A DNA stretch of 64,000 nucleotides from Epilithonimonas caeni DSM 17710 (GTDB lineage Bacteria; Bacteroidota; Bacteroidia; Flavobacteriales; Weeksellaceae): the NCBI RefSeq assembly GCF_000426465.1, contig NZ_KE384528.1, positions 239,698 to 303,697 on the forward strand. Direction: 5' to 3'. Under the pieces are notes generated by a model, which saw only the letters and a list, made by a program, of their open reading frames with translations, searched no databases and had not been told where the DNA came from. This document shows, in pieces, positions 30,646 to 39,071 of the stretch (position 1 is its first letter; every line of letters begins with the position of its first letter). The translations under genes and the position numbers were made by a program.

Positions 30646-31185
30646 TTATAGAACACTTCTTGCAAAAAGAAATGCTTTATTCCAATAAGCTTCGTTAAGA
30701 GACGAAATAATCACACCTTTGGAAGTGGATGCATGGATAAAAGTAACTTCCCCACTATTCAGAATATCGTGAACAATCCCAACGTGTGTCACAGTAGAAC
30801 CTCCAGCGGTTGCAAAAAACAACAAATCTCCTGGCCTCGCTTCGGAAACATTGATACTCCGCCCTTGTTTTGCCTGATCCGAAGAACGTCTCGGCATTTG
30901 GATCTTTTCTTCGTCAAACACCTTGCACACCAAACCTGAGCAATCGAAACCGGCAGGTGTATTGCCTGCATACTTGTAAGGAGTTCCCAAATAATTCTCG
31001 GCATTATCCAAAATCGAGGCTCTTGTTCCGGAGACATTTCCAGAATAGGATGAATTTAGTTTTTTGAGATTGGCAGATTTATTTGTTGTTGAAGGTTTTT
31101 TGTAAGTATATTTTTTTGCGGACCTGGAAGTTCCACAAGAAATTACCAAAGCAGAAAGGATAATTACCAACAATAATTTTCTCAT
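30646..31185 (-). CDS. NlpC/P60 family (C40) peptidoglycan endopeptidase lipoprotein
   Basis: This 179-residue protein has a lipoprotein signal (LLVIILSALVISC, Cys about residue 17) and a C-terminal NlpC/P60 domain. The catalytic cysteine lies in GFDCSGLVCKVF (about residue 94), the histidine in VTHVGIV (about 147) and the third residue in FIHAST. It should cut peptide bonds in peptidoglycan while anchored to the outer membrane. It has its own terminator. Confidence 0.92.
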   Translation of the reverse strand: MRKLLLVIILSALVISCGTSRSAKKYTYKKPSTTNKSANLKKLNSSYSGNVSGTRASILDNAENYLGTPYKYAGNTPAGFDCSGLVCKVFDEEKIQMPRRSSDQAKQGRSINVSEARPGDLLFFATAGGSTVTHVGIVHDILNSGEVTFIHASTSKGVIISSLNEAYWNKAFLFARSVL

Positions 31186-31359
31186 ATTTCAAAATTACTC
31201 CATATTTTCAAATAAAAAAATCATCGAAACATTATTTTCTGTTTGAAAACACTATTTTCTGACAGATTGAAAATGAATTTTCAGCTTTGCACTATCCAAT
31301 TTATATATTTTTCTAATAAAAGATGTTTTTACTTTAGAATTTATTTGAACTTACAAAAA

Positions 31360-31391
31360 CTTTAAAACAGCAAAGGGAATCCCTTTGCTGT
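31360..31391 (-). terminator. Terminator of fibre-like gene A
   Basis: A perfect 11-bp stem (ACAGCAAAGGG / CCCTTTGCTGT) with a 3-base loop is followed on the minus strand by TTTTAAAGTTTTTG. Confidence 0.8.
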
Positions 31392-31454
31392 AAAGTTATA
31401 TAATAGAATTTGTGTGTTTAAAAATTGTATATATTATAAGAATTTCCATAAACC

Positions 31455-33392
31455 TTACAAAGGCATATAAGTAATAAAAATTGTTGACCCGGAATTTGTT
31501 TTATAGGTCTGATTACCCGTTCTTGCACATCCTGTCTCTACAGATATCTGAGCTCCCGGGTTCAATATCACGCTCCTGGAAATTTCAGTTGTTCCTGCAG
31601 AATTCGACCATCTGTCTCCAATTTTCCACAAATTTTTCCCGCCCATTGATAATTTGGCCCTGCATCCCGATCTTGTATCACTGCTATTAACCACAGGAAT
31701 ATCATCATATAGAACGATGACCTCCGCTGTATATACCCCTGCTTTCTTTACCCGATAGGTTGTATTATCTACCTTTTCAATATAATCCGAATAAATTTTG
31801 TTAGGTGCACCTTCAAAGGCCAATGGTCTTTCCACATCATCGGCATTGCGGCTAACTACATTATTATTAGTATCATACAAAACAAAAGAACTGGTTGGCG
31901 GAAGGGAACTCTTTTGAACAACCCCATTGTTATCCACAACTAGTATTCTGCCCTCTGTATTACCATTTGGGATATTCCTTAAGCGTACTGTTCCGGAAAT
32001 ATCAAGCTTTTCAGTAGGAGAGACCACACCGATACCTATTGCACCTGTACCTCCAAAATTCAAATTATTGCCCCCTAAGGTTACGGTTCTGTTTTCTGAT
32101 AATGTGCCGTTGCTGGTATAGATATTAGTGTTGGTATCGATTTCTGATCTTAAAGTTGACATGGAAATTTTTTTCCCCGTTCCGTTACTCGTTAAAAGCA
32201 TGACACGGTCTGTGGCTGCGATTTCTGTTTCAAGAGGTACGCTTCTGAGCCTTACATTTCCGTTAACGTCAAGTTTTTCGGAAGTTTCCCATGTCCCTAG
32301 CCCAATCCCCACTTTCCCATCGTCCTCAACTGAGAATTGTCTGATATTATCTGTACTAGTAAGGCGCATTATAGGTTCTGTTATATCTGTATTACGAACA
32401 CCCAGGGCAGCATTTTTTGTACCAGGCCCAACGGTCATCTTGCCTCTAATACTAGAATCTCCATTGACATCCAATTTTTCGGAGGGATTACCAGTTGTTC
32501 CTATTCCGATATTACCATTTCCTTGAAATGAGAGGTTTTTACCATCCATTGTGACCACTCTATCGGAGGTCAGCGTTCCATTGTCTTTATAAATATTGAT
32601 ATCACTATTGACAGTCCTCGATACTTTCTTTACCACCCCATTATCATCAATGACCAATATCTTGTCATCTACAGTTCCATTCTCTACAACCCTAAGACGT
32701 GCTGAGCCCCAAACGTCTATTCTCTGGGAAGGTTCAATCTCTCCCAACCCAATTCCAACATTTCCGACATCCGTCACAGAGAATTGTCGTATATTATTTG
32801 TATTTGTAAGGCGTAGTATGAGGTCTGACGCATTTGTATTCAGTACACCCAATGCAGCATTCTTTACGGTATTTCCTCCAATGAAAACCCTTTGTCTAAA
32901 ACGGGCATCCCCTCCATTAACATCCAATTTTTCTGTTGGAGCACCAGTGGTACCTATTCCCAGATTTCCGTTTCCTGTGAAAGCTAAATTGAATCCATTC
33001 AGATTAGCATTACGATTATTTGTCAGGTTTCCATCATCTTTATAAATGTTGATGTCATTTTCATTATTACTTGCCCCCGAAGAAAACCTAATCCATTTGC
33101 TTCCATCAAAATAGTAATATCCTTCCCGAGTAACGTTTTCTGTTTTGGTACTCGTAGGGTTTGCCGCCGAGGTTGCATAAACAATGGCTCCTTGTAATTG
33201 GCTCGTATACAGTGCATCTTTGGCCTTTAATTCGTTTCCTCCGAGTTTCGGAGCGATAAATCCATCCGTTTTATTAAAATCTGTTGGGGATGATGTAACA
33301 TCCAACGTTGCTTTAGGCTGATCTGTATCAATACCCACTTGCGAGAATGACAAAGAAGATACTAAAACAAATAGTGTCATAATTTTTTTCAT
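31455..33392 (-). CDS. Surface-fibre-like repeat protein A with C1q/TNF-like head
   Basis: The 645-residue protein has a signal peptide (MKKIMTLFVLVSSLSFSQ) and the module SQVGIDTDQPKATLDV at its start. Three repeats follow at about residues 113-264, 264-419 and 421-500, each beginning NIYKDDGNLT or similar and containing GIGTTG.P.EKLDVNG and, in the first two, NIRQFSV. The third repeat lacks the middle. This is typical of beta-rich trimeric fibres such as tail fibres. The C-terminal head (about 500-645; AGVYTAEV, ILNPGAQISVETGC, STIFITYMPL) looks C1q/TNF-like. No T9SS sorting domain is seen. A shared 30-bp motif lies upstream at 33518. Function is unknown; adhesion is inferred. Confidence 0.7.
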   Translation of the reverse strand: MKKIMTLFVLVSSLSFSQVGIDTDQPKATLDVTSSPTDFNKTDGFIAPKLGGNELKAKDALYTSQLQGAIVYATSAANPTSTKTENVTREGYYYFDGSKWIRFSSGASNNENDINIYKDDGNLTNNRNANLNGFNLAFTGNGNLGIGTTGAPTEKLDVNGGDARFRQRVFIGGNTVKNAALGVLNTNASDLILRLTNTNNIRQFSVTDVGNVGIGLGEIEPSQRIDVWGSARLRVVENGTVDDKILVIDDNGVVKKVSRTVNSDINIYKDNGTLTSDRVVTMDGKNLSFQGNGNIGIGTTGNPSEKLDVNGDSSIRGKMTVGPGTKNAALGVRNTDITEPIMRLTSTDNIRQFSVEDDGKVGIGLGTWETSEKLDVNGNVRLRSVPLETEIAATDRVMLLTSNGTGKKISMSTLRSEIDTNTNIYTSNGTLSENRTVTLGGNNLNFGGTGAIGIGVVSPTEKLDISGTVRLRNIPNGNTEGRILVVDNNGVVQKSSLPPTSSFVLYDTNNNVVSRNADDVERPLAFEGAPNKIYSDYIEKVDNTTYRVKKAGVYTAEVIVLYDDIPVVNSSDTRSGCRAKLSMGGKNLWKIGDRWSNSAGTTEISRSVILNPGAQISVETGCARTGNQTYKTNSGSTIFITYMPL

Positions 33393-33517
33393 CGTGTTTT
33401 TTTTAATTTATTATTGTTTTTTTTTAAATGCAAGCTGAACCATTCTATCTTAATTCAACTCACCAATTAGAGTGATATTTTGATTTGCAAAACAACCAAA
33501 ATATTAATTTTAACGAA

Positions 33518-33547
33518 AAAAAAGCACTACTCAACCATTACTTTATA
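33518..33547 (-). promoter_or_regulatory. Conserved upstream motif of fibre gene A (direct-repeat operator candidate)
   Basis: On the minus strand AGTAAT-GGTTG-AGTAGT sits next to GCTTTTTT, 125 bases before the ATG. 26 of 30 bases match the site at 35344-35373 upstream of fibre gene B. The two hexamers begin 11 bases apart. Confidence 0.6.
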
Positions 33548-33603
33548 TTTATAAAAAACTGAAAATCAAAAACATATACTTATAAAAACAAAACTTACAT
33601 TAA

Positions 33604-33789
33604 ACTCAGAATTTCTTAGCCTACAATCATCATGCATGTAAAACAGGAGGCAGACTGACATACAGTACACCTTGCGTAGAAATTCTCATAGGAAAATATT
33701 GTTCCGAAGAATTTTATATCATAAGGGACGACAAGACAGTATTTATTGCGAATGACGAATCAGAAAAAGGGTTTGACCATTATCATTGA
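33604..33789 (+). pseudogene. Startless open frame, possible gene remnant
   Basis: Sixty-one sense codons (TQNFLAYNHHACKTGGRLTY... ending in SEKGFDHYH) run without a stop but lack ATG, GTG or TTG, and an in-frame TAA precedes them. The composition is protein-like. It might be the tail of a lost gene. Confidence 0.25.
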
Positions 33790-33812
33790 CCTTCAACCAA
33801 ACCGAAAATGAG
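33782..33812 (-). pseudogene. Remnant of a second LuxR regulator copy (3' end)
   Basis: The 27 bases at 33782-33808 match the last 40 bases of the regulator gene (35541-35580) except for a clean 13-base gap. In the intact copy the missing 13 bases lie between two CAACCAA repeats, which suits slippage deletion. The deletion breaks the frame (FSVWL then KVND). Upstream sequence is only loosely similar. Confidence 0.5.
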
Positions 33813-33874
33813 ATATTTTGAGATAATTAATCAAATCCTTTCCAAGATTGGAAGTTCAAGTTCAAATATCATAA

Positions 33875-35200
33875 TTATAGTGCTGTAACACTAAACAGCG
33901 CTTTATAATCTGCAATATTTGCATATGAAAAGATGGCAGGGTAGGAATATCCCGACGTAGCACCGTTCACTGCATTTGTAGCATTGAGGTACACTACCGT
34001 ATTGAGCGTATCCCCCGCATTCAAAGAGACCATCCCGGTCACAAGTACAGAATAACGTAAAGCTGATTGCCCCGGGGTAGCCCATCTAATTGTGGCATTA
34101 TCCATAATATTGATACCTCCCGAAGGACTTCCACCTGCATTTTTTCTAATTTCGAGGTTCACAGGATAGTAGAAATTGGAAGTATTTCTATCGGGCGATG
34201 CATTTGGCATTATATAAGATGTAATCAAATAAATACCTGTCTGTCCCACCGTATATGTTCCGGTACTTACATCAAACCTTCCATTTGGGTCCGTAACAGT
34301 TGTATCAAACTTTTGAAAAAATCTTTGGTTAACAACACCTCCAGGATTGGCTCCATTTATAATAGTAGTAGCCCCATTTGCTTCATTGTTCAATGAGATT
34401 GATGCCAGTGTTGCGGAAGCGGGATTTACAGCTCCCCATTGCGTCTCTCCTGCTGCATTAGTTGTAAGAACATAACCGTTAGTAGGAGCATTGGATGGTA
34501 AAGTCAACGTTCTATTAGAAGTAAGATCTGCAGGTGCCTGTAGAGATATTGAATTGGTCCCGTTTGAAACATTTTCATAAAATTTCACAGAAGAGGCGAT
34601 TCCACCGGAATTATTACTGACGGAAATATTGCCCGCAACATCTAACTTTTCAGTAGGATTATTTTTCCCAATTCCAATTCTATCATTTGTTGCGTCAACA
34701 CTCAAAGTATTGTCATCCAAGTTAATGGCATCCAGTCCCGTTGCTGTGACACTAAGTTTGTTTGTAACAGTAACTCCCGATATAGTGGTAGGTTCGGTCA
34801 AACTTCCGCCTAATTTTATATTATTATTTGATATGGTCACACCATTCTCTGCACTGTAACTAACATTCATTTTTTGCCAAAGACTACCATCAAAATAATA
34901 ATACCCGACAGAAGTAATATTAGTTCTTGGAACATTGGAATTACCCCCAGAGACATCGCTTATGTATATTATTGCTGCATTTTGCCCTGCCCCATAGGTA
35001 ACATTGATATTCGTAAGTTCTTCTCTCGTTAATCTAGGGGCTTGCAAACCATAATGTTGAGAGTAATCTTCAATAACACCTGCTGAATTTCTTTTTGCAC
35101 TAATATCCATTGTTGACCTAGGAGATTCAGTATTGATTCCTACTTGTGAAAAAGACAAGGACGATATCAAAACAAATAATGTAATAATAGTTTTGCTCAT
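33875..35200 (-). CDS. Surface-fibre-like protein B with C1q-like head
   Basis: The 441-residue protein has a signal peptide (SKTIITLFVLISSLSFSQ) and the same opening module as fibre A (VGINTESPRSTMDI, then GYYYFDGSLWQKM). The middle has IGIGKNNPTEKLDVAGN and the phage-fibre-like LTLPSNAPTNGYVLTTNAAG. The C-terminal domain (about 290-430) follows the C1q pattern: FFQKFDTTVTDPNGRFDVST, GTYTVGQTGIYLIT, LEIRKN, SLNAGDTLNTVVYL. A trimeric surface fibre is likely. It has no repeats like those of A and no T9SS domain. The regulator gene lies 341 bases upstream and the shared motif at 35344-35373. Confidence 0.7.
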   Translation of the reverse strand: MSKTIITLFVLISSLSFSQVGINTESPRSTMDISAKRNSAGVIEDYSQHYGLQAPRLTREELTNINVTYGAGQNAAIIYISDVSGGNSNVPRTNITSVGYYYFDGSLWQKMNVSYSAENGVTISNNNIKLGGSLTEPTTISGVTVTNKLSVTATGLDAINLDDNTLSVDATNDRIGIGKNNPTEKLDVAGNISVSNNSGGIASSVKFYENVSNGTNSISLQAPADLTSNRTLTLPSNAPTNGYVLTTNAAGETQWGAVNPASATLASISLNNEANGATTIINGANPGGVVNQRFFQKFDTTVTDPNGRFDVSTGTYTVGQTGIYLITSYIMPNASPDRNTSNFYYPVNLEIRKNAGGSPSGGINIMDNATIRWATPGQSALRYSVLVTGMVSLNAGDTLNTVVYLNATNAVNGATSGYSYPAIFSYANIADYKALFSVTAL

Positions 35201-35541
35201 AATATTTGTAATTATTTTTATATTAAATTTATTATACTAATGACAATCTATTTGTAACAATTATCCAAAATCAATAATTATTACAAATAATAATAGATAT
35301 TTTTTTTAATTTTCAATAATAACAAAATTTGATTCTTTGAACTAAAAAAGCATTACTTAACTATTACTGTATAGCCACAGATAAACAGTTTTTGTTAAAA
35401 AAGAGGAAATTTGTCTAGAATATGAGATATGTAAAAGCCAAGATGTGGCCAGGCTAAAGCTCAACACATTAACGAAACGGACTCAAAGTAAATTGAACAA
35501 TTCCAGAAGGGAATTTGAGTATAATGATTTAATTTCCAACA
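35201..35541. other. Gap between fibre gene B and its regulator
   Basis: This very AT-rich 341-base region carries the conserved motif at 35344-35373 and no gene. No strong terminator of the regulator was found, so read-through into fibre B is possible. Confidence 0.5.
35344..35373 (-). promoter_or_regulatory. Conserved upstream motif of fibre gene B (direct-repeat operator candidate)
   Basis: On the minus strand two perfect AGTAAT hexamers are separated by AGTTA, and GCTTTTTT follows. The site is 143 bases before the ATG. The hexamer starts are 11 bases apart, about one helical turn. Confidence 0.6.
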
Positions 35542-37038
35542 TCATTGACCTTCAACCAACGACCTCAACCAAACCGAAAAATCCAGATGGGTAGGCAATT
35601 CCAATTTCTTACGAATATTGTATCTGTTACTTTCAATCGTTCGTACTGATTTAAAAGTGTAATCTGCAATTTCCTTATTTGAGAAGCCCAGAAAGATATA
35701 GGCACACAGAGTAAGTTCAGAACTTCTAAACTTTGGATGTTTTTCCAACAATTTCTCCCGGAAGCCCGGATACACTTCCTGGAATCTTGTCCAAAAATGA
35801 GGATTGTTTTTTTTCGCCAGCAGGACAATCTCTTCAAAAGACTCATTCACCTTCTGCTGAAGAATCTGTGCCTCCTTCCCTTTTTCATGAATAATGGATT
35901 CTTTTTCTTCCAACAACTGCTTTGTCCGGTAATCTGCTCTTTTTTTGTTTCTTTTCTCAAAAAAATAATAGAGAATCAAGATTGACAACAAAACAAAAGA
36001 CGCCATAAGCATCTGATGAAATCTTTTTGTGAATATGATCGTTTGCACATGCTTTTCCTGCTGTATCAGATTTAAAGCATAATTGATATTTTTTTCATTT
36101 TTTTCCGAAATCTCTTCATTCTTTCGCAGATATTCTAACAGGTATTCTTTTTCCCTTTTCTTATCTCCTAACTTCCCATAGAGTCCTGAAATCTCTTTAT
36201 ATACATCCATAAGGGCATTGCTTTCTTGGGGAAATTGAACAAGTTCTTTTTCTGCATGAAGAAAATTCTCGAGAGACTTTTCAACCTGTTGAGAATTAAG
36301 ATAGAATCTGCCCATAGCCGCATAATAATCATAAAGGGGAAAATTTGCCTGATATTGGGTTGATACGCGACGTGATTCCTGGTAGTAGTAAAATGCAGAA
36401 TCATATTTTTTTGCCTTTAAATAGTTATCCCCTTGTGAAATATAAGCTACAGACAATCTTTCATAAGCATCTTTTTCAGGCAACTTCTTCAAAAGAGCCA
36501 TTTCAATTGCTGTATATTTTTTCAAGGAATCAAGGGAATTTAGTTCATAATAATAGGTAGAACCAATATTTCCATAGGATGATGATAGAAGTTTAACGTA
36601 TAAAATATCGGAATCTTTATTGCTTTCATTAATAACACTGATTATTTCCCTGCTTAATTTTCGCGATTTATCATATAGCCTCAAGTCATGACTATTGTTC
36701 GCTTTAATTTCAAGTAAGCGCAATTTAAGATCGATATTCGTCTGAGTAAATTTTTCGCTTAGTGCTTTTTCAGCATATTTTAAACCATTTTCATACATTC
36801 CTAATGTGGAACTTGCTCTACTTATATAATAATAAGATATGGCAATGCTCCGAGAATTGTTTATTTTGCTTGCTAATTCATTTGCTTTAAGGCCGTATTG
36901 TAAAGATTTTAAATCTTCGAAATTAATATATGCATCATTAGATACCTTAAGATATTCATCAATTTTTTTTTGATATGTTTGTTGAGCGGATACTATTACA
37001 CCAAAAAATAAAATTATAATAACTGATATCCATTTCAT
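35542..37038 (-). CDS. Membrane-spanning TPR-LuxR transcriptional regulator
   Basis: The 498-residue protein has an N-terminal signal or anchor (WISVIIILFFGVIVSAQQ), periplasmic TPR-like helices (about residues 25-330; e.g. SYYYISRASSTLGMYENGLK, AYERLSVAYISQGDNYLKAKKYDSAFYYYQ), one membrane segment (about 344-360, LMASFVLLSILILYYFF), a coiled coil (about 365-405) and a LuxR/GerE-like helix-turn-helix (about 437-482; SSELTLCAYIFLGFSNKEIADYTFKSVRTIESNRYNIRKKL). It should sense the periplasm and bind DNA inside the cell. It is encoded upstream of the fibre genes and probably controls them through the shared motif. That link is inferred. Confidence 0.85.
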   Translation of the reverse strand: MKWISVIIILFFGVIVSAQQTYQKKIDEYLKVSNDAYINFEDLKSLQYGLKANELASKINNSRSIAISYYYISRASSTLGMYENGLKYAEKALSEKFTQTNIDLKLRLLEIKANNSHDLRLYDKSRKLSREIISVINESNKDSDILYVKLLSSSYGNIGSTYYYELNSLDSLKKYTAIEMALLKKLPEKDAYERLSVAYISQGDNYLKAKKYDSAFYYYQESRRVSTQYQANFPLYDYYAAMGRFYLNSQQVEKSLENFLHAEKELVQFPQESNALMDVYKEISGLYGKLGDKKREKEYLLEYLRKNEEISEKNEKNINYALNLIQQEKHVQTIIFTKRFHQMLMASFVLLSILILYYFFEKRNKKRADYRTKQLLEEKESIIHEKGKEAQILQQKVNESFEEIVLLAKKNNPHFWTRFQEVYPGFREKLLEKHPKFRSSELTLCAYIFLGFSNKEIADYTFKSVRTIESNRYNIRKKLELPTHLDFSVWLRSLVEGQ

Positions 37039-37260
37039 CAGATAAGTTTTTTCACAAAATTAAGACTCAATAATTTCCATTTAATTGATAGGTATGACCT
37101 CTATCATTATTTGCTAGTAAGTAAAAAATTAAGAGGGCAACTAGTGCCCCCTTTAATCAATAATCTGGTTTCTATGAACTCGAATATCTGAATAAATGAA
37201 TACAAATTCCTTGCCATAAAACAAATTAAACTTCTGAAATTCAGAAGTTTAATAATCAAG
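37039..37260. other. Gap upstream of the regulator
   Basis: It holds an imperfect hairpin at about 37132-37161 (GAGGGCA / TGCCCCC) and the tRNA-Ala terminator at 37226-37252. No gene is seen, and no copy of the fibre motif. Confidence 0.5.
37226..37252 (-). terminator. Terminator of tRNA-Ala
   Basis: The stem AAACTTCTGA / TCAGAAGTTT with a 3-base loop lies just downstream of the minus-strand tRNA; the T tail is weak (TAATTTGTTTT). Confidence 0.6.
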
Positions 37261-37334
37261 TGGAGAATACGGGGATCGAACCCGTCACCTTTAGACTGCC
37301 AGTCTAACGCTCTAGCCAGATGAGCTAATTCCCC
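37261..37334 (-). tRNA. tRNA-Ala (anticodon GGC)
   Basis: Read on the minus strand, acceptor GGGGAAT pairs with ATTCTCC (one G-T pair) plus discriminator A. The D arm, anticodon loop CTGGCAG with anticodon GGC, and T loop TTCGATC are all present. CCA is not encoded. The gene stands alone. Confidence 0.93.
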
Positions 37335-37388
37335 TTTTATTATGCAATGATAATCATTTTGCAGAATATCAGCAAAATTTAATGTAAA

Positions 37389-37421
37389 TAAAAATCGGGC
37401 TCAAACAAATTTGAACCCGAC
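37389..37421 (-). terminator. Terminator of the DUF2007 gene
   Basis: The stem TCGGGTTCAAA / TTTGAGCCCGA with a 4-base loop is followed by TTTTTAT on the minus strand. Confidence 0.85.
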
Positions 37422-37453
37422 TTCTGTAAAACGTAAAATTTAAAAATATGAAA

Positions 37454-37681
37454 TCAATTTTGATTTGATTTTAAATATTCATCAATGATATCAAATGCTC
37501 TTTTCTCGTCCTTGATATCAACTTTAATAAAAGTATTGGTTGCAGTTGGAGTTGATAGAAAACTAAGGTAAGAATTCTCAACATCGCATTTGATTCCTGC
37601 ATCTTCCAACTTAGATTTCATAAGCTGGATCTCCTGTGGACTGCTACTTTCGTAGACAGCTACTCTAGTTGTTGCATCCAT
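37454..37681 (-). CDS. DUF2007 protein, putative signal-transducing
   Basis: The 75-residue cytoplasmic protein has the DUF2007 pattern: VAVYESSSPQEIQLMKSKLEDAGIKCDVEN followed by STPTATNTFIKVDIKDEKRAFDIIDEYL. It forms a small ferredoxin-like alpha/beta fold in known relatives. The role is unknown. It ends in its own terminator and lies downstream of the lysine transaminase gene, 68 bases apart. Confidence 0.85.
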   Translation of the reverse strand: MDATTRVAVYESSSPQEIQLMKSKLEDAGIKCDVENSYLSFLSTPTATNTFIKVDIKDEKRAFDIIDEYLKSNQN

Positions 37682-37748
37682 AAATTTTTGATTTTGATTT
37701 TGTTAAAGCATAGCAATTTATGAAAAAAATATCAAAATCTAAAATTCC

Positions 37749-39071
37749 TTATATTAAATTCTCAAATATCTGATTAATTTTATCTAAAACAATCTGGATT
37801 TCATCTTTCGTTACATTCAGATGTGGGCGGAATCTCAACGACTGGTCACCACAGGTCAAGATAATGACCCCTTCATCGTAAAGCTTGCTTCTCAGCCATT
37901 CTCTGCTTTCTCCATCTTTCAGGTCAAAGGCACACATCAAACCTTTCCCTCTTGCTGCTGAAATATGGTCCGGATATTTTTGTGCTAACTTTTTAAGTCC
38001 TTCTAATAAAAACTCACCTACGACTCTGGAGTTTTCAACCAGATCTTCATTTTCAATGATTTCCAAAACCAATTGAAAACGAAGCATATCGATAAAATTA
38101 CCTCCAAAAGTAGAATTGATCCTTGAGCTTTCCTTGAAAACGTGATGTTCCACTTCATCCAATTTTTCTTTATTGGCAAGGATTCCGCAAACCTGAGTTT
38201 TTTTACCGAAAGTGATAACATCAGGAATTATATCAAGATGCTGGAAAGCCCACATTTTTCCTGTCATTCCGATTCCGGTTTGGACCTCATCAAGGATTAA
38301 AAGGATTTCGTTTTCATCACAGATTTTTCTTAATTCAGTAAAGAATTCGTTTCTGAAATGATTATCTCCACCCTCTGCCTGAATTGGTTCTATAATCACA
38401 CAAGCAACTTCATCCGGATTTGCCAAAATAGCTTCCTGAATATGCAATAATGCCAATTGCTCGTGCTTGATCGTTTCTTCAAGATTATCTTCTGTAATTG
38501 GAAAATTAAGTTTTGGATTGCTAATCCTTGGCCAATCGAATTTTGGGAAATACTGGTGTTTTCTCGGGTCAGAAGTATTGGTCAAAGACAATGTATAACC
38601 ACTTCTCCCGTGGAAAGATTGTTTGAAATGGATCACCATGCCAGCTTCCTTATCAATATTCTTTTGCCAGTTCTTTCTTGTCTTCCAATCAAAAGCTGTC
38701 TTCAAAGCATTTTCTACAGCCAAAGCACCGCCTTCTACGAAAAAGCAATAAGGCAATTCTTTCGGAATAGCAACTCTTGAAAAAACCTCCATAAAATCGG
38801 CATATTCCTGAAGATAAACGTCACTCAGAGTTGGCTTGTAAATGGCCATTTTCCCAAGCCAATTTGCTTTTTCCAAAATGTATGGATGATTATAACCTAC
38901 GGAAGCCGAAGCGAACATAGAGAACATATCGAGATATTCTTTACCAGTCAATCGGTCTGCAATGTAGGAACCGTGTGATTTTTCATAATCCATTACAAAA
39001 TCGAAACCGTCTGCAAGGATATGTTTTCCTAATATTTCTTTTACTTTATTTTCGTGTACAAGTGTGCTCAT
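37749..39071 (-). CDS. lat: L-lysine 6-transaminase
   Basis: This 440-residue PLP enzyme moves the epsilon-amino group of L-lysine to 2-oxoglutarate and makes aminoadipate semialdehyde. It is a class III aminotransferase with YCFFVEGGALAVENALKTAFDWK, HFKQSFHGRSGYTLSLTNT, the acidic LILDEVQTGIGMTGKMWAFQ and the PLP lysine in TFGKKTQVCG. STFGGNFIDMLR follows. The overall sequence fits lysine 6-transaminases of Flavobacterium and actinobacteria. The next gene upstream makes the second enzyme of the route. Confidence 0.93.
   Translation of the reverse strand: MSTLVHENKVKEILGKHILADGFDFVMDYEKSHGSYIADRLTGKEYLDMFSMFASASVGYNHPYILEKANWLGKMAIYKPTLSDVYLQEYADFMEVFSRVAIPKELPYCFFVEGGALAVENALKTAFDWKTRKNWQKNIDKEAGMVIHFKQSFHGRSGYTLSLTNTSDPRKHQYFPKFDWPRISNPKLNFPITEDNLEETIKHEQLALLHIQEAILANPDEVACVIIEPIQAEGGDNHFRNEFFTELRKICDENEILLILDEVQTGIGMTGKMWAFQHLDIIPDVITFGKKTQVCGILANKEKLDEVEHHVFKESSRINSTFGGNFIDMLRFQLVLEIIENEDLVENSRVVGEFLLEGLKKLAQKYPDHISAARGKGLMCAFDLKDGESREWLRSKLYDEGVIILTCGDQSLRFRPHLNVTKDEIQIVLDKINQIFENLI

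What the first reader, a model, noticed from the sequence alone, without database searches (positions are those of the whole stretch)
31455..37038. Regulator plus two C1q-headed fibre genes sharing a direct-repeat upstream motif
Two secreted fibre-like proteins with C1q/TNF-like heads lie downstream of a membrane TPR-LuxR regulator. Both have the same 30-bp sequence (26 of 30 identical) 125 and 143 bases before their ATG. In it, two hexamers (AGTAAT, or AGTAAT and AGTAGT) begin exactly 11 bases apart, and three of the four differences are C/T transitions. The arrangement suggests one regulator controlling a set of surface fibres through this site. I know of no description of such a system.
Basis: partly seen in the sequence, partly recalled or inferred. 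Interest (0 to 1): 0.75.

Follow-up and report, generated by a model that had tools for sequence, protein, structure and literature searches.

The report
Membrane regulator with private fibre-gene switch
A bacterium carries a membrane sensor gene beside two surface-fibre genes that share a distinctive DNA switch, and related bacteria carry other sensor-and-surface-gene sets in which the switch sequence tends to change in step with the sensor's DNA-reading helix, which suggests a family of plug-in surface-control circuits that I did not find in the papers searched.

Summary
In detail: a 30-bp element (26/30 identical) lies 125 and 143 nt before two fibre genes, hexamers 11 bp apart. At up to 2 mismatches the 4.1-Mb genome has only these two copies, both exact. 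A consensus built from the window and one relative (4 sites) found 8 further hits in 320 family genomes: 6 precede orthologous fibre genes clustered with the orthologous membrane TPR-LuxR gene; 2 look like chance, as many as the reversed control.

Wider finding: relatives of the regulator often stand by other surface-protein genes whose promoters have the same geometry (11-bp direct repeat, TTTG at a fixed distance) but another half-site; 38 of 86 loci scanned gave no site. Recognition helix and half-site covary (0 of 5000 permutations). A prediction noted in advance held at 6 of 8 held-out sites near a regulator, 8 of 8 if Met may replace Ile; 5 more sites had no regulator.

Best reading: the regulator binds the repeat and activates both genes. 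Binding, sign and signal are untested. Fibre 1's head is C1q/TNF-like; fibre 2's is only suggested.

The parts
35542..37038 (-). Membrane TPR-LuxR regulator, 498 aa
36982..37038 (-). Signal-peptide-like N terminus of the regulator (residues 1-19)
   Evidence: hydropathy
35956..36012 (-). Predicted membrane-spanning segment (residues 343-361) between TPR region and DNA-binding domain
   Evidence: hydropathy
35545..35853 (-). LuxR/NarL-like DNA-binding domain (residues 396-498)
   Evidence: Pfam GerE E 7e-5, 22.8 bits, just under its cut-off of 23.5; profile hits EvgA 4e-4 and VraR 1e-3 in PDB
35605..35655 (-). Presumed recognition-helix stretch FKSVRTIESNRYNIRKK (residues 462-478)
   Evidence: alignment; covariation with half-sites
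35344..35373 (-). Direct-repeat box of fibre 2 (AGTAAT-N5-AGTAAT-GC-T6), 143 nt before ATG
35314..35321 (-). -7-like TATTATTG; its ATTG stands where other cassettes have TTTG
   Evidence: read; one mismatch to TAnnTTTG
33875..35200 (-). Fibre 2, 441 aa, secreted; head tentatively C1q/TNF-like; family profile matches Bdellovibrio Bd2133 in the stalk
33518..33547 (-). Direct-repeat box of fibre 1 (AGTAAT-N5-AGTAGT-GC-T8), 125 nt before ATG
33488..33495 (-). -7-like TTGTTTTG, TTTG starting 36 nt after the second AGTA core
   Evidence: read; one mismatch to TAnnTTTG
31455..33392 (-). Fibre 1, 645 aa, secreted, internally repeated stalk
31458..31895 (-). C1q/TNF-fold head of fibre 1 (about residues 500-645)

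Best explanation
The three genes are a self-contained control cassette. The regulator is a single-pass inner-membrane one-component sensor: TPR domain in the periplasm, LuxR-type DNA-binding domain in the cytoplasm (inferred from hydropathy). It binds, as a dimer or two monomers on one DNA face, the two half-sites one helical turn apart. These lie just upstream of the presumed -33 region, so it most likely activates the two fibre promoters. Fibre 1 is a secreted fibre with a C1q/TNF-fold head, fibre 2 probably similar; both are probably adhesins. The cassette is one of a family in Weeksellaceae in which regulator branches read their own half-sites. Shown by sequence comparison: conservation, geometry, covariation, exchange of parts. 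Inferred: binding, activation, topology, trimer formation, adhesion, and a signal that is not the fibre itself.
For: In the genome the box occurs only at these two genes up to 2 mismatches. Of 12 family hits at up to 1 mismatch, 10 in 6 genomes precede orthologous fibre genes clustered with the regulator orthologue; 4 of the 10 defined the consensus, so 6 of 8 are new. With a loosened pattern 11 of 11 fibre-1/fibre-2 promoters in these 6 genomes carry it (fibre 1: 5, fibre 2: 6). TPR-LuxR is the only regulator of the kinds checked in all 6 cassettes: TPR-AraC in 4, a small HTH pair in 3. In 40 regulator loci fetched later, RGTA-N7-RGTA occurs 23 times against 3-11 at other spacings; any-hexamer repeats followed by TTTG total 300 at 11 bp against 76-144 at 8-10 and 12-16 bp, overlapping frames counted. 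Helix against site: rho 0.39, 0 of 2000 permutations; 0.36-0.45 after three degrees of collapsing relatives, 0 of 5000 each, against 0.12-0.24 for the rest of the domain. Advance-noted test: at the 8 held-out TGTGATA sites with a regulator within 6 kb the nearest helix is RAVQIRKNR in 6 and RA[VI]QMRKNR in 2; this helix type was in 5 of 99 regulators of the other loci, all five in loci with TGTGATA-type sites. A stand-alone copy of the domain has a box of the same geometry before it in 9 of 9 loci inspected.
Against: No binding or expression data. 38 of 86 regulator loci gave no site in the scan, among them the C. defluvii locus (L048/L135), whose regulator is 40-41% identical to the window's. 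A conserved paralogue (L070, L077, L079-L082, L084, L085, L087, L088) sits among housekeeping genes. L158 has a helix close to L162's but a different best site. The fibre-2 -7 element is TATTATTG, and neither -7 is a perfect TAnnTTTG. The 624-aa fibre of four sister cassettes has no box (0 of 4). The window regulator's own promoter has no box, unlike some relatives'. Five of 13 held-out TGTGATA sites had no regulator in the fetched region: three in coding sequence, one before a fibre gene, one other intergenic; L199 and L203 look like one orthologous cassette. Covariation partly reflects descent. Scoring and thresholds were chosen while looking at the data, and the L063 row in the permutation set is probably the wrong repeat. 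The general pattern RGTA-N7-RGTA-N36-TTTGC is unspecific: 14 of 30 inspected hits were in coding sequence.
Confidence: 0.72

Rival explanations
1. The boxes are bound by another regulator that travels with the cassette (the TPR-AraC membrane regulator or the small HTH pair seen in sister cassettes) or by a trans-acting global factor.
For: TPR-AraC genes stand near the AGTART cassette in 4 of 6 genomes, and the 141+113-aa HTH pair in 3 of 6. AraC proteins can bind direct repeats (recalled, not tested).
Against: Neither is encoded in the 64-kb window, and TPR-AraC is absent from L053 too; the rest of the window's genome was not searched for them. A global factor would not explain half-sites that differ by cassette and follow the LuxR recognition helix.
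Confidence: 0.13
2. The regulator binds the boxes but represses: it blocks RNA polymerase at the -33 region until the signal arrives.
For: The half-site cores lie about 37-51 nt upstream of the TTTG, close enough to touch the -33 region.
Against: The T-rich stretch that would be -33 follows the repeat rather than being part of it, and the -7 elements are imperfect, as in activated promoters. Boxes before regulator genes in other cassettes fit positive and negative feedback equally. No expression data.
Confidence: 0.2
3. The box is a leftover of duplication: the fibre genes duplicated with their promoter and the similarity has no regulatory meaning.
For: The two proteins are related (fibre 1 against fibre 2, phmmer about 1e-19).
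Against: Within and between species the box stays at 0.83-0.88 identity while the 5' and 3' flanks are at 0.37-0.49 (the box figure is raised because sites were picked with a pattern). Unrelated cassettes keep the geometry with other sequences.
Confidence: 0.03

Closest known systems
LuxR/NarL-type response regulators (EvgA, VraR; Pfam GerE)
   Same: C-terminal domain aligns with EvgA and VraR DNA-binding domains; Pfam GerE at E 7e-5.
   Different: No receiver domain among the Pfam matches; instead a TPR sensor and membrane segment in one chain.
MalT of E. coli (recalled, no call)
   Same: Works alike: LuxR-type DNA-binding domain joined to a helical-repeat sensor, acting at direct repeats upstream of promoters.
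   Different: MalT is a soluble ATP-dependent protein; here there is a hydrophobic segment and no ATPase domain among Pfam matches up to E 1.
Streptomyces SARP and SARP-LAL activators (PMC5930380, seen as a search listing only; 11-bp periodicity recalled)
   Same: Heptameric direct repeats upstream of the promoter bound by an activator.
   Different: Another DNA-binding domain (recalled: OmpR-type), soluble, antibiotic gene clusters.
ToxR/CadC-type membrane one-component regulators (recalled)
   Same: Sensor and DNA-binding domain on opposite sides of the membrane in one protein.
   Different: Those have an N-terminal winged helix; here a C-terminal LuxR-type domain.
Mosaic adhesive trimer (MAT) fibres of Bdellovibrio (PMC10769870, abstract and passages seen)
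   Same: The fibre-2 family profile matches Bd2133 (8ond) at E 7e-5; MAT tips include TNF/C1q-like folds, as does the head of fibre 1.
   Different: The passages seen name no regulator or operator; trimer formation here is untested.
Bacteroidetes promoter TAnnTTTG (passages in PMC6414381)
   Same: A TTTG element at a fixed distance from the repeat in the cassettes listed.
   Different: Both window -7 elements have one mismatch; a direct-repeat operator is added upstream.

Membership tests
LuxR/NarL (GerE) DNA-binding domain | Match to Pfam GerE at the curated cut-off | tested here: inconclusive
   22.8 bits against cut-off 23.5, E 7e-5
LuxR/NarL (GerE) DNA-binding domain | Profile similarity to solved LuxR-type domains | tested here: met
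   EvgA 4e-4, VraR 1e-3 over about 60 residues
TPR proteins | Tandem tetratricopeptide repeats | tested here: met
   TPR_2 E 1e-4 (below its cut-off); profile of 20 regulators hits a consensus TPR protein at 4e-20 and many TPR chains
Membrane one-component regulator | Membrane segment separating sensor from DNA-binding domain | tested here: inconclusive
   Hydropathy peaks at 1-19 and 343-361, next best far lower; topology not measured
C1q/TNF fold, fibre 1 head | Jelly-roll fold of C1q/TNF type | tested here: met
C1q/TNF fold, fibre 2 head | Jelly-roll fold of C1q/TNF type | tested here: inconclusive
   Model pLDDT 36; Foldseek hits to TNF-family at E about 1e-4 with large rmsd; Pfam C1q 0.017, below cut-off
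MAT fibres | Sequence relation to MAT fibre proteins | tested here: inconclusive
   Fibre-2 profile to 8ond at E 7e-5; fibre-1 profile gave no MAT hit up to E 1
MAT fibres | Trimeric fibre on the cell surface | not testable with these tools
   -
MalT | ATPase (STAND) domain, soluble activator | tested here: not met
   No ATPase domain among Pfam matches up to E 1; hydrophobic segment 343-361
Bacteroidota promoter | TAnnTTTG at -7 | tested here: inconclusive
   TTGTTTTG and TATTATTG, one mismatch each; no mapped start site

The most novel reading that the evidence does not exclude
Weeksellaceae carry an open-ended family of plug-in circuits: a membrane TPR-LuxR sensor, a private 11-bp direct-repeat operator and surface fibres or secreted proteins. 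A short recognition helix specifies the half-site by a readable protein-DNA code, the sensor domain is exchanged while operator and output stay fixed, and whole cassettes move in and out of chromosomal slots.
Probability: 0.6. Interest if true: 0.82.

Novelty: new variant of a known kind. Interest (0 to 1): 0.73.

Why it matters
Control of surface fibres in this phylum is, in my judgement, poorly known. If right, this gives many natural regulator-operator pairs from which a protein-DNA recognition code can be learned and tested, lets target genes be predicted from a regulator's helix, and shows sensors being replaced while operator and fibre output stay the same. It could also give orthogonal regulatory parts for Bacteroidota genetics.

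Tried and rejected
Rejected: a genome-wide or random repeat; a mere duplication relic. The window's exact spelling found nothing at up to 1 mismatch in the other 22 genus genomes, and at up to 2 mismatches fewer hits (5) than the reversed control (15); only after reading the neighbours of a regulator relative did the looser consensus appear. A whole-family search with the general core plus TTTGC was too unspecific to use as a statistic: I did not total its columns, its list was truncated, and I use it only for the 30 loci inspected and for a count by eye. The genome-contig scan gave 5 loci. The model of fibre 2 is too poor to use and only the head of fibre 1's model is usable. The profile of fibre 1 found no convincing solved relative by sequence. 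No cap was left to model the regulator. A repeat-like site before window ORF 24926 (score 9.8) was taken as chance.

Literature: searches of the open PMC library. Of the papers listed, none is by title or abstract start about TPR-LuxR regulators, direct-repeat operators and surface fibres in these bacteria. Searches listed only 8 of 542, 12 of 30 and 8 of 18 papers, and subscription papers are not held. Of PMC6414381 I saw passages, of PMC10769870 the abstract and passages; the others only as listings.

Caveats on statistics: L048-L088 suggested the core and the distance; one search leaves out the window and L053 but is not independent of that discovery. The 40 loci were fetched later, but L135 (and marginally L174) overlaps L048, the same contig by length and position. 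The permutation test treats cassettes as exchangeable. From the table, rows below score 10.3, rows with no regulator within 6 kb and helices with gaps were dropped and one row per distinct helix kept (26 rows).

Full report
What is there. Three genes lie on the minus strand in the order regulator (35542-37038), fibre 2 (33875-35200), fibre 1 (31455-33392). Each fibre gene has a box 143 or 125 nt before its ATG: AGTAATAGTTAAGTAATGCTTTTTT and AGTAATGGTTGAGTAGTGCTTTTTT. In the whole genome (4,114,763 bases) these are the only hits with fewer than 3 mismatches; the four weaker hits are at the level of the reversed control, 5.

The window's branch in other genomes. With the window's own spelling nothing at up to 1 mismatch appears in the other 22 genomes of the genus, and at up to 2 mismatches the reversed control has more hits (15) than the pattern (5). 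But the best regulator relative in the genus (G010, 37% identity) stands near two fibre genes that carry AGTAGTCGTTAAGTAATCG and AGTAGTTGTTAAGTAGTAG before a T run. The consensus of these four sites, AGTARTNGTTRAGTARTNNTTTTTT, gives 12 hits at up to 1 mismatch in 8 of 320 family genomes, reversed control 2. Four of the 12 are the defining sites. Of the other 8, six in 4 genomes lie upstream of orthologous fibre genes in a cluster with the TPR-LuxR orthologue; one is inside a coding sequence and one is intergenic with no regulator in the region. With a pattern loosened after the fact, 11 of 11 fibre-1 and fibre-2 promoters of the six genomes have the box, while the 624-aa fibre of four cassettes has none. 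Mean identity is 0.83-0.88 in the box (raised by the choice with a pattern), 0.37-0.49 in the 5' and 3' flanks, 0.39-0.61 in the spacer and 0.44-0.63 around -7.

A general architecture. Scanning loci of related regulators for hexamer pairs before a T run gave 26 upstream hits at 11 bp and 0-11 at other spacings from 7 to 16 (overlapping frames counted, window included). Leaving out the window and L053, RGTA-N7-RGTA occurs 17 times in 365 upstream regions against 1-6 at other spacings, and TTTG follows the second core at 36-37 nt in 9 cases, with 0-1 at each other distance from 25 to 47. In 40 loci fetched later (412 upstream regions, 104.7 kb; L135 overlaps L048) the core pair occurs 23 times against 3-11, TTTG peaks at 36-38 nt (10 cases; 0-1 at each other distance), and any-hexamer repeats followed by TTTG total 300 at 11 bp against 76-144 at 8-10 and 12-16 bp. 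In the looser site table 48 of 86 loci have at least one site, some surely by chance, and 38 have none. Downstream genes include fibres, large secreted proteins, lipoprotein-like proteins, regulators themselves and small HTH genes; by a crude signal-sequence test 20 of 26 pass against 225 of 415 ORFs in the same loci. Not every relative belongs to such a cassette: one conserved paralogue sits among housekeeping genes (L070, L077, L079-L082, L084, L085, L087, L088).

Who reads the site. Regulators with similar recognition stretches tend to have similar half-sites, also across genera: KS[IV]RTIESNRYN with AGTART in 6 of 6; KSIRT[IV]ENNRYN with AGTAGTYGTTGAGTAG in two (L137, L138); VTPKAVQNRKNR and VTPSAIQNRKNR with TGTGGTAT (L069, L157); RAIQLRKNR with TTAGATA/GAGATAG (L075, L160); KS[IT]NT[VI]RNR with [AG]TAGTAC (L063, L159, L166). 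Against: L158, with a helix close to L162's, has another best site, and several loci have no site. Over 26 distinct-helix cassettes helix similarity and site similarity correlate at rho 0.39 (0 of 2000 permutations), the rest of the domain at 0.26 (4 of 2000). After collapsing relatives to 24, 20 and 13 cassettes the helix gives 0.410, 0.445 and 0.356 (0 of 5000 each) and the rest of the domain 0.211, 0.238 and 0.124 (91, 122 and 1046 of 5000); without the AGTAR group the helix gives 0.518 (0 of 5000).

An advance-noted test. After seeing the hit list but before looking at the held-out loci I wrote that TGTGATA-N4-TGTGATA sites near a regulator should come with RA[VI]QIRKNR. The search of 197 genomes gave 20 hits in 14 genomes, reversed control 9. 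Of 13 held-out sites in 11 regions, 8 have a family DNA-binding domain within 6 kb; the nearest is RAVQIRKNR in 6 and RA[VI]QMRKNR in 2 (L196 and one of L200), so 6 of 8 strictly and 8 of 8 if Met is allowed. The other five: three in coding sequence, one before a fibre gene and one other intergenic, none with a regulator in the region. The widened helix is in 5 of 99 regulators of the other loci, all five in loci with TGTGATA-type sites. L199 and L203 look like the same cassette, so the independent cases are about five.

Stand-alone domain. A box GGTAYSTATGTGGTA with TTTGC at the same distance shows in 40 genomes of genus g6 in the truncated list (counted by eye; g6 taken as Chryseobacterium because contigs of G065 and G206 have the lengths of named Chryseobacterium contigs). 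In 9 of 9 loci inspected it precedes a 113-aa protein that is just this DNA-binding domain, with a helix (VTPKAIQNRKNR) like that of L069, whose box is similar.

Modularity. Among the six AGTART regulators the DNA-binding domains are 65-91% identical pairwise, the TPR regions 26-85%; L099 and L100 share 88% of the domain but 33% of the TPR region, with a sharp change at the domain border. The fibres are 65-70% identical to the window's. So the input varies while operator and output are kept, which argues against the conserved fibres being the signal. The cassette occupies a slot between nlpC and an aminotransferase gene, next to tRNA-Ala (37260-37334). Of 20 other genus genomes fetched, 10 have no ORF of 80 aa or more there and none has a match to the regulator or fibres; G010 has a different regulator-fibre cassette in that slot (L071) and its AGTART cassette elsewhere (L053). 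One of the 23 genus genomes (G018) was not fetched.

Verdict. The parts are of known kinds; the wiring (membrane TPR-LuxR sensor, cassette-specific 11-bp direct repeat at a fixed promoter position, surface-fibre output, helix-operator covariation) was not found in the ten searches named under Tried and rejected.

Noticed in passing
L099, L100, L103, L053 against window 35542-37038: TPR sensor domain apparently swapped while the DNA-binding domain stays nearly constant (L099/L100: TPR 33%, DNA-binding domain 88%).
   Followed up: partly
L113-L115, L122-L126, L131: Stand-alone 113-aa DNA-binding domain with a box of the same geometry upstream, suggesting autoregulation.
   Followed up: partly
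L099 14213-15844, L100 13123-14787, L101 7436-9079, L103 5058-6428: A second membrane TPR regulator with an AraC-type domain near the fibre cassette in four genomes; not encoded in the window.
   Followed up: partly
L053 13915-14648, L101 11262-12004, L103 8757-9499, L061 10585-11882: Recurrent pair of small HTH proteins (about 141-150 and 110-113 aa, 'IHIG..I' and 'YK.IY.DIL') beside such cassettes; in L061 and L062 the first has a box upstream.
   Followed up: partly
window 31185-37749 and L071, L206-L225: The slot between nlpC and the aminotransferase gene, next to tRNA-Ala, has no ORF in 10 of 20 relatives and different cargo in others: a likely insertion hot spot.
   Followed up: partly
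L054, L058, L061, L062, L063, L066: Regulator relatives sit with an about 200-aa first gene, a large secreted protein and a 170-210-aa protein starting ..QVAIGK or similar; boxes lie before the first gene in several.
   Followed up: no
window 31455-33392 and 33875-35200: Fibre 1 has an extra internal stretch (645 against 498-499 aa) and fibre 2 a longer, different N-terminal part (441 against 328 aa) compared with orthologues: mosaic fibres.
   Followed up: no
L198 9301: A TGTGATA box before a fibre-like gene with no regulator in the 19 kb fetched: possible trans control.
   Followed up: no
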